From assembly GCA_035968315.1 (NCBI GenBank), contig JAVYIN010000007.1, forward strand, positions 218,996 through 282,995: a stretch of DNA of 64,000 nt. Direction: 5' to 3'. Position numbers and translations under genes: made by a program. Below, one piece after another: positions 20,782-26,937 of this stretch. The stretch's first letter is position 1, and every line of letters begins with the position of its first letter. The DNA is from Nitrospira sp. (lineage in GTDB: Bacteria; Nitrospirota; Nitrospiria; Nitrospirales; Nitrospiraceae). Under the pieces are notes generated by a model. The model had not been told where the DNA came from and did not search any database. It saw only the letters and a program-made list of their open reading frames with translations.

Positions 20782-20810
20782 TTGACTCAACCGAGGCCCT
20801 CCATTAGAAT
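20782..20810 (+). promoter_or_regulatory. Sigma70-type promoter of the amino-acid operon
   Basis: TTGACT (20782-20787), a 17-base spacer and TAGAAT (20805-20810) lie in the gap between divergent pdxJ and the aminotransferase gene. Transcription would start near 20817, about 75 bases before the first ATG, and the leader contains a stem-loop at 20822-20858. Confidence 0.7.
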
Positions 20811-20892: not shown

Positions 20893-22089
20893 ATGGGTTT
20901 GGGCGACGGGTTCTATCGGTTAAAGCGGCTCCCTCCTTACGTCTTTGCACAAGTTCAGGCTCTCAAGCTGGAAGCGCGGCAGCGCGGGGAAGATGTGATC
21001 GACTTCGGGATGGGCAATCCCGATCAGCCGACGCCGCCCCATATCGTCGAGAAGCTGATTGAAGCGGCGCGCAAGGGCAAGAACCATCGCTACTCCGCGT
21101 CGCGCGGCATTACTAAGCTGCGCCACGCGATCTGCGGCTGGTACAAGCGGAATTATAATGTCGATTTGGATCCGGAAACCGAAGCGATCGTCACGATCGG
21201 CTCCAAGGAAGGGCTCGCCCATCTGGCGCTGGCGATGATCGGTCCCGGCGACGTGGTGCTGACGCCCACGCCGACGTACCCGATCCATATGTACAGTTTT
21301 ATCATTGCCGGCGGCGAGGTGCGGGGCATTGAGTTGCGGCAGGACAGTGATTTCTTCGAAGATCTGCAGCGGGTCTACCGGCAGACGATTCCCCGTCCCA
21401 AGATTTTGGTCATCAATTTTCCGCATAATCCGACGACGGCGGTGGTCGATATCGAGTTCTTCAAGAAGATCGTGGCGTTTGCGAAAGAAAACGATGTCAT
21501 TGTCATACACGATCTGGCGTATGCCGACCTCGTGTTCGATGGCTATAAGGCCCCGAGCTTCCTGCAGGCCCCTGGAGCGAAGGATGTCGGGGTGGAGTTT
21601 TATACGCTGTCGAAGGCCTACAATATGCCGGGCTGGCGGGTCGGGTTCTGCGTCGGCAATCGTGAAGTGGTCGGGGCGCTGGCCAAGATCAAGAGCTATC
21701 TCGACTACGGCATCTTTCAGCCCATTCAGATTGCGAGCGTCATCGCGCTCAACGGTCCGCAGGACTGCGTGAAAGAGACGGTGCTGCGCTATCAGAAGCG
21801 GCGGGATGTGCTGGTCGGCGGCCTGAACCGCATCGGCTGGGAGGTGCCCAAGCCGCTTGCGACGATGTTTGTCTGGGCGCGGATTCCCCCGGCCTACCGG
21901 CATCTCGGGTCGCTGGAATTTTCCAAGCTGCTGCTGCGTGAGGCCAAGGTCGCCGTCTCCCCCGGGATCGGATTTGGTGAAGGGGGCGATGAGTACGTGC
22001 GATTCGGGCTCGTCGAGAATGAGCACCGGACTCGCCAGGCCGTGCGTGGGATCAAGAAGGCCTTGAAGCTCGAAGGATCAGAGGAATGA
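20893..22089 (+). CDS. Class I/II aminotransferase (AlaC / LL-DAP aminotransferase-like)
   Basis: 398 residues, PLP fold type I. Conserved features are [34 protein letters not shown], and the Schiff-base Lys at residue 241 in [16 protein letters not shown]. The closest family by eye is the AlaC/alanine-synthesising group, which is hard to separate from LL-diaminopimelate aminotransferases. Its place at the head of hom-thrC-lysC suggests work in aspartate-family metabolism or alanine/glutamate exchange. ATGA overlap with hom shows tight coupling. Confidence 0.88.
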
Positions 22090-23399
22090 AGTCCCGTATC
22101 GGGGTTGGGCTCATCGGGTTTGGCACGGTCGGTTCCGGCGTGGCCAAAGTGCTGTTCGAGAATGCCGCGCTGATCAGCCGCCGGGTCGGTGTGCCGGTCG
22201 AACTGCTGCGGATCGCGGATCTCGATATCACGCGCGATCGCGGGGTGGCGGTGCCGGCCGGTGTTCTGACGACGGATGCCAAACAGGTGTTGACCGATCC
22301 GGCCATCGACATTGTCATCGAGCTGGTCGGCGGATACGACTTTGCGAAGCGTGTGATGCTCGAGGCCATTGCCGCCGGCAAGCATGTGGTGACGGCCAAC
22401 AAGGCGTTGCTCGCGCTCCATGGGGAAGAGATTTTCGAGGCGGCGTCCCGTCAGGGCGTCGATGTGGGATTCGAGGCCAGCGTCGGGGGCGGGATTCCGG
22501 TGATCCGGGCTTTGACCGAAGGGCTGGCGGCGAACCGCATCGAGTCGATCTACGGCATCATCAACGGCACCTCGAACTATATCCTTTCCCGGATGACGCA
22601 CGAGGGCCAGAGTTTCGATGCGATCCTCAAGGACGCGCAGCAGGCCGGATACGCCGAAGCGGACCCGACCTTTGATGTGGCGGGCATCGATTCGGCGCAC
22701 AAGCTGGCAATTCTGGTCAATTTGGCCTATGGCACGCCGGTGAATATCAAGGACATCTATACCGAAGGTATTACGCATATCACGCCGACCGATATCGCTT
22801 ATGCCAAGGAGTTCGGCTACCGGATCAAGCTGTTGGGCATCGCCAAGCTGGTGGATGGAGAAGTGGATGCCCGTGTGCATCCGACCATGGTGCCGGTGTC
22901 CGATCCGATTGCCAAGGTAGACGGGGTCTACAACGCGATTCAATTGGTCGGCGATGCGGTGGGGGATGTGATGTTGTACGGCCGGGGCGCGGGATCGCTG
23001 CCCACCGGCAGCGCGGTTGTCAGCGACGTGATCGCTATCGGGCGCAACCTGCTCAAGGGCGCTCCAGGCCGTGTGCCGCCGGCCTCGTTCCAGCGGGACC
23101 AGCGCCGCCCGATCAGGATGAAGCCGATCGAGGAAATCAGTTCGCTCTACTATCTGCGCTTCATGGTGGTGGACCGTCCCGGCGTGCTGGCACAGATTGC
23201 CGGAGAGTTGGGCCGGTGCGGTATCAGCATTTCGTCGATGCTGCAGCAGGGCCGGGGGGAAGGGCAGACGGTGTCGGTGGTGATCAAGACGCACATGGCG
23301 CAGGAGCGTGATGTGCAGACGGCGCTTCGCGAGATCAACCGCAAGCCGTTTGTATCTGAACCGGCGACGCTGATTCGGGTGGAAGGGAAGGATGAGTGA
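22086..23399 (+). CDS. hom: Homoserine dehydrogenase
   Basis: 437 residues. NAD(P)-binding Rossmann N-terminus ([18 protein letters not shown]), catalytic middle with [30 protein letters not shown] and [18 protein letters not shown], and a C-terminal ACT domain (about 355-430; [20 protein letters not shown]) that normally gives threonine feedback inhibition. Monofunctional, not fused to aspartokinase; the kinase is encoded separately two genes downstream. It shares ATGA with the preceding aminotransferase gene. Confidence 0.97.
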
Positions 23400-24462
23400 T
23401 CGGATGACTCGTTGGCGCGGCATCATTGAGGAATACCGGAAGTTTCTCCCGGTGACGGAGAAGACGCCGGTGATCAGTCTGGGCGAGGGGCAGACGCCGT
23501 TGATTCGCGCTGCGCGGTTGGCCAAGGCCATTGCGCCCGGCGTCGATCTCTATTTGAAGTTCGAAGGCGCCAATCCGACCGGGTCGTTCAAAGACCGCGG
23601 CATGACCATGGCCATTTCCAAGGCGGTGGAGCAAGGGGCGCGGGCCGTCATGTGCGCCTCCACCGGCAATACGTCGGCCTCGGCCGCGGCCTATGGGGCG
23701 AGAGCCGGGCTGGCTGTTTACGTCCTGATCCCGGCGGGGAAAATTGCATTGGGGAAATTGTCTCAGGCGATGATGCATCAGGCCACGGTCATTCAGATTG
23801 AAGGCAATTTTGATCAAGCGCTCACGATCGTCAAAGACCTCTCCGTCACCCATCATATCGAACTCGTCAATTCCATCAATCCATTCCGCATCGAAGGGCA
23901 GAAAACGGCGGCCTTTGAAGTGTGCGATCAGTTGGGCGATGCGCCGAACCTGCATGTGCTGCCAGTCGGCAATGCCGGGAACATCACGGCCTATTGGAAG
24001 GGCTATCAAGAGTATCGAGCCGCGAGCCAGACGACCAAGCTTCCGCGCATGATGGGGTTCCAAGCCGCCGGGGCGGCGCCCATGGTGCTCGGCCGAATTG
24101 TGGAACAGCCGCAAACCATTGCCACCGCGATTCGCATCGGAAATCCGGCAAGCTGGACCGCCGCCTCCAAAGCGGTTGAGGAGTCGTCGGGGGCCATCGA
24201 TATGGTGACGGACGAAGAAATTCTCCAAGCCTATGCCCTGGTGGCGGCGACAGAAGGCGTATTTTGCGAACCGGCTTCGGCCGCGTCGGTAGCCGGCGTG
24301 ACGAAGTTGGGCCGGGCGGGGAAATTGCGGGAAGGGGAGACCGTGGTCTGTACGCTGACGGGGCATGGGTTGAAAGACGCCGATACGGCGATCGGCATTT
24401 CCAAGCCGCCGCTCACCGTCAAGGCGACGCGCGAGGATGTGGCTCGTTTGTTAAACGCATGA
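23392..24462 (+). CDS. thrC: Threonine synthase
   Basis: 356 residues, PLP fold type II. The PLP Lys is residue 67 in [28 protein letters not shown] binds the phosphate, and [20 protein letters not shown] is typical of the short bacterial/archaeal class. Converts O-phosphohomoserine to threonine, so the organism must phosphorylate homoserine somehow; no thrB kinase is visible here. ATG 23392 overlaps the hom stop; ATG 23404 is an alternative. Confidence 0.96.
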
Positions 24463-24479
24463 GGCGCATCGGATAACCT

Positions 24480-25691
24480 ATGAAATATGTCATTCTTCAT
24501 GCTGGTGGAATGGCCGACCGGCCTCGCGAGGAGCTAGCCGGGCGGACGCCCTTGCAGGCTGCCGCCACGCCGCAGCTCGACCGGCTGGCGCAACTCGGTG
24601 AAGTGGGCCTATTGGCCATCGCCGCGGATGGAAGCCGCCATGGGAGCGGACTCAGCGGGACGGCGATTCTCGGCTACGATCCCAAGAAGTACTATCAAGG
24701 GCCGGGTCCGTTCGAGGCGGCGAGCTTGGGCGTATCGGTGACCGAGCATGATGTGGTCTACCGCTGCACCATGGTAACGCTGAAGCCCGAAGGCGGAAAG
24801 ATCGGCGGAGAGATCAAGAAGTTAGGGGCGCATGTCGTGATGGACGATGCGACCGCCGGGTTGATCGAAACGGACGAGGCGCGGGAGCTGATCGAAGCCA
24901 TCAATGAGCAGCTGGGATCCGAGATGATCCAATTTTATCCCGGGGCCGGCCACCGCCATCTGATGGTGTGGGTCAACGGCAAGCCGCGGGCAATCTGTAC
25001 CGATCCGCAGCTCGTCCAAGGCCAGACGATTACCGATTCTCTGCCGACAGGGGATGGATCCGACCTTCTGAAAAAAATGATGGATGCCTCCTATGTGATC
25101 TTGCGCGATCATCCGGTCAATGAGGAGCGGATGGCGGCGGGAAAAAAGCCGGCGAATTGTGTATGGCTCTGGGGAGAGGGGCGCGCGGCGTTGTGGCCCA
25201 GCCTTGCCGAGCGATTCCAGATCTCCGGGTCCGTGGTGACGTCGAGCGACGTGCATCGCGGCGTCGGGATTTGCGCGGGGCTGGATGCGCCCGATCCCGC
25301 CAGGCTGCAAGAGGGGGGGCTGAAGGCCAGGGCCGCGGTGGCGCTGGCTGAGTTGTCCAAGAAAGACTTCGTCTATCTGCATGCCGAGCTGACGGACGCC
25401 GTGGTGCATGGGACGGATCTCAAGGCTACTGTGCAGGGCATCGAAGAGTTCGATCGTGAACTGGTCGGCCCGCTGCTCGAGGGACTGTCGAAGATGGGTG
25501 CCTTTCGCTTCCTGGTGCTGTGCGATCAGGGCGAAGGCCGGCAGGGGCAGGCTTTCTATGCGTTCGGCGAGAGCGCGGGAAGCGGCGCCCCGGCGGCGGG
25601 ACGGCGCTTCACGGAAGCCGAGGCCCAGGCCTCCAAGGCTCCGGTTCGGGACGCGACGAAGTTTGCAACCAAGTTATTTGCCAAGGGGTAA
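24480..25691 (+). CDS. ApgM-family protein (proposed homoserine kinase group), metal site degenerate
   Basis: 403 residues of the cofactor-independent phosphoglycerate mutase (archaeal ApgM) type, in the subgroup placed next to hom/thrC and proposed to act as homoserine kinase. Family-typical parts are [37 protein letters not shown] and GHRHLMVW. Several metal ligands are missing. The first motif reads HAGGMAD where relatives have GDGMAD, so the Asp at position 9 is Gly. Ser56 is present but the next Asp is Gly. D306 and H310 are kept, but DH near the end is DQ (349-350) and no later His exists. Whether it is catalytic is open. It lies 17 bases after thrC and 4 before lysC. Confidence 0.8.
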
Positions 25692-25695
25692 TCGG

Positions 25696-26937
25696 GTGGC
25701 GTTGATCGTTCAGAAATATGGCGGGACCTCGGTGGGCAACATCGAGCGGATCCATAAGGTGGCGGATCGTGTGGCGCAGGCGCATCGCGCGGGCGATCAG
25801 GTGGTGGTGGTCTTGTCCGCGATGAGCGGTGAAACGGATCGTCTGGTCAAGCTGGCGCACGAAGCCACGCCGATGCCGGATGAACGTGAGATGGACATGC
25901 TGCTGTCCACCGGAGAGCGTGTCACGATTGCGCTCCTGGCGATGGACCTGCGGGGCCGCGGGATCAATGCGCGCTCCTTCACGGGACGGCAGGTGGGCAT
26001 TATTACCGACAGCGCGCATACCAAGGCCCGGATCGCGCGCGTGACGGCGGACCGGCTTCGCGACGCATTGAACCAAGGCGTGATTCCGGTCGTCGCGGGG
26101 TTTCAGGGGATCAACGAGCAGTCGGATGTGACCACGCTGGGGCGCGGAGGATCCGATCTGTCGGCCGTGGCGCTGGCGGCGGCATTGAAAGCCGATCGCT
26201 GCATCATTTTCACCGACGTCGATGGTGTCTATACGGCAGACCCCAATGTTGTGCCGGCGGCCAAGCGCATCGACAAGATATCGTACGAAGAAATGCTGGA
26301 AATGGCGAGTCTTGGCGCCAAAGTGCTGCAGGCCCGGTCGGTCGAGTTCGCGGCGAAGTTCAATGTCCCGGTCGAGGTCAATTCGAGTTTTAAAGAAGGA
26401 AAGGGGACTCTCGTGACACGTGAAGATGCGGATATGGAAGCGGTCGCGGTCGCCGGCGTCACGGGCGACCGGAATCAAGCCAAGATCACGATCGTCGGCG
26501 TCCCCGACAAGCCGGGCATTGCCGCGCGGATCTTCGGGCCTGTGGCACAGGCTCATGTCAATGTCGATATGATTATCCAGAACATGGGGCAGGATTCGCT
26601 GACGGATCTTTCCTTCACCGTTCCCCGCGCGGATTTGCGCAAGGCGACGCCGATCATTCAGAGTGTGGCCAAGGAGATCGAGGCCAAGTCCGTGTCGATC
26701 ACGGAGTCGATCGCCAAGGTGTCGCTGATCGGCGTGGGCATGCGCTCGCATTCCGGTGTGGCGTCGAAGATGTTCGAGGTGCTGTCTCGCGAAGGGATCA
26801 ATATCCTGATGATCAGCACGTCGGAGATCAAGATCTCCTGTGTCATCGATGAGAAGTATCTTGAATTGGCGATGCGTTCGCTGCATTCGGCGTTCGGTCT
26901 CGACCAGGTGGCACAGGGAGATCGTCCGGCGAAATAG
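25696..26937 (+). CDS. lysC: Aspartate kinase
   Basis: 413 residues from GTG 25696, four bases after the apgM-like stop. The N-terminus [18 protein letters not shown] is the canonical start of monofunctional aspartokinases; the frame is open further upstream inside the previous gene. The kinase domain has [29 protein letters not shown] and [15 protein letters not shown]. Two ACT domains follow ([39 protein letters not shown]) for lysine/threonine feedback. First committed step of Lys, Thr and Met synthesis. Confidence 0.97.

What the first reader, a model, noticed from the sequence alone, without database searches (positions are those of the whole stretch)
24480..25691. ApgM-like protein in the threonine cluster lacks several metal ligands
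In iPGM/ApgM enzymes two metals are held by Asp, Ser, Asp-His and Asp/His/His. Here the first Asp is Gly (HAGGMAD), Asp after the Ser is Gly (GSGLSG), the DH pair is DQ (349-350), and the C-terminal His is gone. Ser56, D306, H310 and D349 remain, as do substrate-side motifs ([17 protein letters not shown]). An intact ORF in a biosynthetic operon argues against decay. It may be a repurposed enzyme or a regulator of homoserine phosphorylation. No thrB is nearby.
Basis: partly seen in the sequence, partly recalled or inferred. Interest (0 to 1): 0.75.

Follow-up and report, generated by a model that had tools for sequence, protein, structure and literature searches.

The report
Disarmed enzyme kept in threonine operon
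In nitrite-oxidising Nitrospira bacteria, a relative of the proposed alternative homoserine kinase sits in the threonine operon with its metal site eroded, yet it is kept by selection in every high-quality genome of the family, while no recognised homoserine kinase was found in this genome and the two classical ThrB types are absent from its order.

Summary
The 403-aa ORF (24480-25691, +) is an ApgM-fold protein between thrC and lysC. Of seven two-metal-site ligands, present 7/7 in 30 of 30 intact Nitrospirota homologues, it keeps four (Ser56, Asp306, His310, Asp349). Asp9 is Gly, His350 is Gln, the C-terminal His is gone; none has moved. The defect is not peculiar to this genome: no Nitrospiraceae sequence examined has more than 5/7, and the residues change repeatedly. 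A 91%-identical relative has Ile at Ser56.

The gene is not a dying relic here: present in 91/91 high-quality genomes of the family, without stops, dN/dS about 0.09. Constraint has moved to cap-domain residues 133-165, now the most conserved stretch, while the catalytic core eroded. In the sister family it is a pseudogene or cleanly deleted in some genomes.

GHMP ThrB and ThrB_alt are over cut-off in 0/126 genomes of the order, and this genome has one shikimate kinase. Other class members have ThrB (15/15). Best reading: a former TIGR02535 enzyme kept as a non-catalytic, cap-centred protein of threonine synthesis; the order's homoserine kinase remains unidentified (ThrH not searched genome-wide). 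Partner or ligand is inferred, not shown.

The parts
24480..25691 (+). ApgM-fold protein, 403 aa, relative of TIGR02535 'proposed homoserine kinase' with an eroded metal site
24504..24506 (+). codon of Gly9, at the position of the first ligand Asp
   Evidence: alignment
24588..25121 (+). PF10143 PhosphMutase (cap) domain, residues 37-214
24645..24647 (+). Ser56, nucleophile/ligand position; retained here, Gly in 13 of 26 genus members sampled, Ile in a 91%-identical relative
24876..24974 (+). newly constrained cap segment, residues 133-165 ([33 protein letters not shown] region)
25395..25409 (+). Asp306 and His310 (DxxxH ligand pair), retained here, lost in many other genera of the family
25524..25529 (+). 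Asp349-Gln350, the former Asp-His ligand pair
20893..22089 (+). alanine-transaminase-like aminotransferase, first gene of the conserved block
22086..23399 (+). homoserine dehydrogenase (hom)
23392..24462 (+). threonine synthase (thrC), close to solved threonine synthases
25696..26937 (+). aspartate kinase (lysC), GTG start 4 bases after the apgM-like stop codon
26998..28647 (+). citramalate synthase (cimA)

Best explanation
The gene descends vertically from an intact TIGR02535-type enzyme (the proposed alternative homoserine kinase, built like archaeal phosphoglycerate mutase). In the class Nitrospiria that enzyme became redundant, probably after a GHMP-type ThrB was acquired, and its two-metal phosphotransfer site eroded. 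In Nitrospiraceae the protein was nevertheless kept as a non-catalytic protein of the threonine operon. Its working part is now the cap domain, centred on residues 133-165, which still holds the old substrate-side residues (Arg159, His160, Trp164) plus a set of newly fixed, mostly polar residues (Arg135, Glu136, Asn142, Glu143, Gln144, Ser147, Glu148, Gln151). The most likely role is binding a pathway metabolite or a partner enzyme of the hom-thrC-lysC operon and thereby tuning or scaffolding the pathway. Shown: ancestry, fold, loss of ligands, purifying selection, the shift of constraint, and operon conservation. Inferred: loss of catalysis, and the binding or scaffolding role. Homoserine phosphorylation itself would then be done by an enzyme not yet recognised here.
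For: Ligands: 7/7 in 30 of 30 intact homologues from other classes; 3-5/7 in genus g1, 1-5/7 in other genera of the family, 1-3/7 in family f2; each ligand position changed 5 to 22 times within the degenerate clade. Asp9 is Gly or Ala in 26 of 26 sampled genus members and Ser56, the nucleophile of the iPGM mechanism, is Gly in 13 of 26. Retention: 91 of 91 high-quality family genomes, no stops inside any match; dN/dS about 0.09 overall and 0.034 in 133-165, with ordinary divergence at fourfold sites there, so the constraint is on protein. Shift of constraint: 133-165 is 82% identical between diverse family members and 76% across families f1 x f2, where the whole protein is 41%; in intact homologues it is 63% against 60%; lowest substitution rate of any 33-residue window, 0 of 2000 permutations as low. 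Fold kept: AF2 model pLDDT 91, best match 2zkt Z 37.0. Vertical descent: f1 and f2 sister groups with f3 next. Other class members have ThrB in 15 of 15 while intact-TIGR02535 genomes of other classes have none in 7 of 7.
Against: No recognised homoserine kinase was found to take over the reaction, so a remaining activity cannot be dismissed. Asp306 and His310 are kept in all sampled genus members and Asp349 in most, so a single-metal site is conceivable. A role for the cap segment rests on conservation only; no partner or ligand was identified. The gene is dispensable in part of family f2 and in f40.
Confidence: 0.55

Rival explanations
1. It is still the homoserine phosphotransferase of these bacteria. 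The old two-metal site was given up and a new active site was built in the cap domain, using the newly invariant polar residues, or a single metal is held by Asp306, His310 and Asp349.
For: No GHMP ThrB over cut-off and no ThrB_alt in 126 genomes of the order; only one shikimate kinase, no ThrB-like APH protein in the window's genome. The gene sits between thrC and lysC in the window, N. moscoviensis and Ca. N. defluvii and is invariably present in high-quality family genomes. Nitrospira strains grow in mineral medium (PMC5767232), so the step must exist. BT2402, an intact homologue, is needed for threonine synthesis in B. thetaiotaomicron (PMC7311316).
Against: Asp306, His310 and Ser56 also vary between genera. 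Genomes of f2 genera g23 and g25 and of f40 keep hom, thrC and lysC but have neither this gene nor a recognised ThrB, so the order can apparently phosphorylate homoserine without it.
Confidence: 0.2
2. It is a relic in slow decay, kept only because it lies inside a tightly packed operon.
For: Metal site eroded; in sister family f2 one copy has five in-frame stops and others are cleanly deleted between thrC and lysC.
Against: In Nitrospiraceae there are no interrupted copies in 114 genomes with a match, dN/dS is about 0.09 (synonymous sites near saturation so approximate), and a specific segment became more conserved than in intact homologues.
Confidence: 0.15
3. It is an ordinary TIGR02535 homoserine kinase or phosphoglycerate mutase whose ligands lie at shifted positions.
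For: Same fold and same operon as intact homologues.
Against: Alignment of 91 homologues, ungapped around the first six ligand motifs; no compensating Asp/His pattern; ligand positions vary among close relatives.
Confidence: 0.04

Closest known systems
TIGR02535 / ThrB2 'proposed homoserine kinase' (Bacteroides BT2402)
   Same: Full-length homology, same place in a threonine operon, descends from intact members in the same phylum
   Different: Three of seven metal ligands missing here and the rest unstable in relatives; 307.5 bits against the 446.3 cut-off; BT2402 is reported to keep the zinc site (PMC9765024)
Archaeal phosphoglycerate mutase ApgM (P. horikoshii PH0037, 2zkt; T. acidophilum 3kd8)
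   Same: Fold, cap insertion, domain order (Z 37.0 to 2zkt)
   Different: Two-metal site eroded; sits in a threonine operon
GHMP ThrB (TIGR00191)
   Same: Would supply the pathway step that is missing here
   Different: Unrelated fold; over cut-off in other families of the class, in none of 126 genomes of the order
Non-catalytic partners of biosynthetic enzymes (for example HisZ with HisG), from general knowledge
   Same: A disarmed enzyme homologue kept next to its pathway
   Different: Here there is no active paralogue in the genome (one apgM-like gene) and no partner has been shown

Membership tests
TIGR02535 proposed homoserine kinase | Score over the curated cut-off (446.3 bits) | tested here: not met
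   307.5 bits; no Nitrospiraceae copy listed passes, intact phylum members score about 510-581
TIGR02535 proposed homoserine kinase | Complete two-metal site (Asp, Ser, Asp, His, Asp, His, His) | tested here: not met
   4 of 7 here, 7 of 7 in 30 intact homologues
TIGR02535 proposed homoserine kinase | Encoded with threonine biosynthesis genes | tested here: met
   between thrC and lysC, after hom
TIGR02535 proposed homoserine kinase | Homoserine phosphorylation | not testable with these tools
   needs enzyme assay; even BT2402 did not complement E. coli thrB (PMC7311316)
apgM subfamily (TIGR00306), iPGM fold | Profile score and fold | tested here: met
   325.5 against 320 bits; 2zkt Z 37.0, rmsd 3.6, 354 aligned
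apgM subfamily (TIGR00306), iPGM fold | Catalytic metal site of phosphoglycerate mutase | tested here: not met
Homoserine kinase, GHMP ThrB | TIGR00191 match over cut-off elsewhere in the genome | tested here: not met
   best 28.8 bits in own genome, which is IspE
Homoserine kinase, ThrB_alt (APH type) | TIGR00938 match over cut-off elsewhere in the genome | tested here: not met
   no match at E 0.001 in own genome
Homoserine kinase, shikimate-kinase type | A second shikimate-kinase-like gene | tested here: not met
   one gene over cut-off
ThrH (phosphoserine:homoserine phosphotransferase) | HAD-type ThrH gene in the genome | tested here: inconclusive
   not searched in own genome; in the two thirds of G184 read, the one HAD-IB candidate is not ThrH, 18.8 against 133 bits

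The most novel reading that the evidence does not exclude
The order Nitrospirales uses a homoserine kinase of a kind not yet described, and in Nitrospiraceae this disarmed protein is its obligatory non-catalytic partner or activator, acting through the cap segment 133-165.
Probability: 0.2. Interest if true: 0.8.

Novelty: new variant of a known kind. Interest (0 to 1): 0.6.

Why it matters
The activity of TIGR02535 proteins is itself unproven. A clade in which the metal site has eroded while the gene stays fixed is a natural test of what the protein contributes. It also exposes a gap: in an order of globally important nitrifiers that grow without amino acids, the two classical kinds of ThrB are missing, so either an unrecognised enzyme does the step or a known but unsearched kind such as ThrH does. 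Automatic annotation would label this gene phosphoglycerate mutase or homoserine kinase, which its residues argue against.

Tried and rejected
Ligands at shifted positions: rejected by alignment of 91 homologues. A DNA or RNA element under the conserved cap segment: rejected, fourfold sites there are as diverged as elsewhere. A replacement kinase in the slot left by deletion: thrC and lysC simply lie some 20-160 bases apart; the extra 328-aa gene in f40 is an FGE-sulfatase-domain protein. The APH protein found in all sampled class members as the missing kinase: it is paired with a MurU-like nucleotidyltransferase and scores as AmgK, so it is unlikely though not excluded. Second GHMP protein of the genome: HddA-like sugar kinase, far below the ThrB cut-off. 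A second look with VIA-align lists only Foldseek's own matches. A motif scan for GpmA/GpmI-type phosphoglycerate mutases in that part of G184, and for the GpmA-type motif in the window, found nothing; which mutase the cell uses was not settled.

Full report
WHAT IS THERE. The ORF 24480-25691 (+) is intact and codes for 403 residues. It matches PF10143 at residues 37-214 and the metalloenzyme superfamily, the apgM model just over its cut-off (325.5 against 320 bits) and TIGR02535, the proposed homoserine kinase, well below its cut-off (307.5 against 446.3). The closest solved relatives are archaeal phosphoglycerate mutases, and an AlphaFold2 model built on 53 sequences (pLDDT 91.3, pTM 0.89) matches 2zkt with Z 37.0, rmsd 3.6 over 354 residues. 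The gene lies in a tight block: alanine-transaminase-like aminotransferase, hom, thrC, this gene, lysC (starting 4 bases after its stop codon) and cimA. ThrC is close to solved threonine synthases, E 1.5e-147 to 2zsj.

THE METAL SITE. With 30 intact homologues from other classes of the phylum in the alignment, the seven ligand positions are Asp9, Ser56, Asp306, His310, Asp349, His350 and a C-terminal His; all 30 have 7/7. The assignment of these residues as ligands is from general knowledge of iPGM; independent support is a paper that maps D12 of a zinc-bound mutase structure to D9 of BT2402 and finds the zinc sites fully conserved in BT2402 (PMC9765024). The window protein has Gly9, Ser56, Asp306, His310, Asp349, Gln350 and no C-terminal His: 4/7. 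Residue 57, the Asp after the Ser, is Gly too but is not a ligand.

NOT A PECULIARITY OF ONE GENOME. The window belongs to Nitrospira: relatives include UBA6493 (91%), N. moscoviensis (78%) and Ca. N. defluvii (57%). In the GTDB family, 114 of 117 genomes and 91 of 91 high-quality ones have the gene, one copy each (two fragmented genomes show an extra partial match), with no stop inside. Sampled genus members (26) have 3-5 ligands, other genera (24) 1-5, family f2 of the same order (6) 1-3, f3 (1) 5, and in the rest of the class f9 has 4, f5 0 and f4 7. Among 78 sequences of named records the best has 5. On trees of the family each ligand position changed 5 to 22 times within the degenerate clade; His350 changed more often than nearly all other positions that are invariant in intact homologues. 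UBA6493, 91% identical, has Ile at residue 56.

KEPT BY SELECTION, WITH A NEW FOCUS. Between 30 family members (26 of them in the genus) median dN/dS is about 0.09, against 0.044 for the part of thrC held in the same loci; synonymous sites are near saturation, so these are rough. Within the protein the constraint has been redistributed. Residues 133-165 are 82% identical among diverse family members and 76% across families f1 and f2, where the whole protein is 41%; in intact homologues the same stretch is 63% against 60% overall. It is the slowest 33-residue window in the degenerate clade, 0 of 2000 permutations being as low, whereas in intact homologues the slowest window is around Ser56. Nine positions there became invariant that vary in intact homologues, while the C-terminal core (271-403) keeps 6 of 38 old invariants. 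Fourfold degenerate sites in the stretch are as diverged as elsewhere, so the constraint is on protein. In the model the stretch is a helix and two strands of the cap. The coordinates of the model were not available to me, so I do not say where on the surface it lies.

WHERE IT WAS LOST. In f2 one genome has the gene in place with five in-frame stops; the g23 and g25 genomes re-searched (G169, G184, G222) have no match, and further g23 genomes had none in the phylum search; in G184, G253 and G222, and in f40, thrC is followed directly by lysC, with the aminotransferase still upstream. The protein is therefore dispensable in some relatives.

WHO PHOSPHORYLATES HOMOSERINE. GHMP ThrB is over its cut-off in 0 of 126 genomes of the order. 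One genome, G021, has a near-cut-off copy (167.7 against 168.25) beside a second thrC, and still keeps the apgM-like gene. ThrB_alt is over cut-off in 0 of 126. In the window's genome the GHMP proteins are IspE and an HddA-like sugar kinase, the APH proteins are AmgK-like and others, and there is one shikimate kinase. By contrast ThrB is over cut-off in 15 of 15 genomes from other families of the class and in none of 7 genomes of other classes with intact TIGR02535. Nitrospira strains grow in mineral medium (PMC5767232), so phosphohomoserine must be made. I infer that ThrB took over in the class and freed the TIGR02535 protein, and that the order later lost ThrB and relies on something unrecognised; the order of these events is inference.

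MECHANISM. The best-supported reading is a former phosphotransferase kept for binding through its cap: it retains Arg159, His160 and Trp164 of intact homologues and has gained a fixed set of mostly polar residues. Binding of a pathway metabolite or of an operon partner is inferred, not shown. The main rival is that it still transfers phosphate by a rebuilt site; the missing ThrB speaks for it, the dispensability in relatives and the free variation of Ser56, Asp306 and His310 between genera speak against it.

COMPARISON WITH WHAT IS KNOWN. TIGR02535 was proposed by its curators as a homoserine kinase; BT2402 of B. thetaiotaomicron is needed for growth without threonine but did not complement an E. 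coli thrB mutant (PMC7311316); it has been called ThrB2 (PMC9026213). A related gene was proposed as threonine kinase in Dehalobacter (PMC4285132). A paper search for Nitrospira together with homoserine kinase gave three papers, by title not about this gene, which I did not read; no paper on such a metal-less clade turned up in the few searches I made. By residues and score the window protein is not a TIGR02535 member; by fold and descent it belongs to the same lineage.

Noticed in passing
L168:6696-11928 (window's genome, contig C5): A second ThrC-like protein (416 aa) lies in a cluster with MoaD/ThiS-like proteins, a cysteine-synthase-like enzyme, two MoeB/ThiF-like proteins, a NIL-domain-like protein and a JAB-type protein (named by eye except ThrC), suggesting a thiocarboxylate sulfur pathway.
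   Followed up: partly
L166 (G021, contig C1:1343971-1345983): One Nitrospiraceae genome carries an extra thrC beside a near-cut-off GHMP thrB and still keeps the apgM-like gene.
   Followed up: partly
L164:8915-9991 (G273): The apgM-like gene is a pseudogene with five in-frame stops, in place between thrC and lysC.
   Followed up: yes
L004:405-2361: AmgK-like kinase and MurU-like nucleotidyltransferase pair is present in every Nitrospirales genome sampled.
   Followed up: yes
L101, L102 (family f5): These ApgM-like proteins have lost all seven ligands, and the genomes have a GHMP ThrB.
   Followed up: partly
window 20782-20810: Promoter-like site (10 of 12) upstream of the aminotransferase gene that begins the block; a consensus match only.
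   Followed up: no
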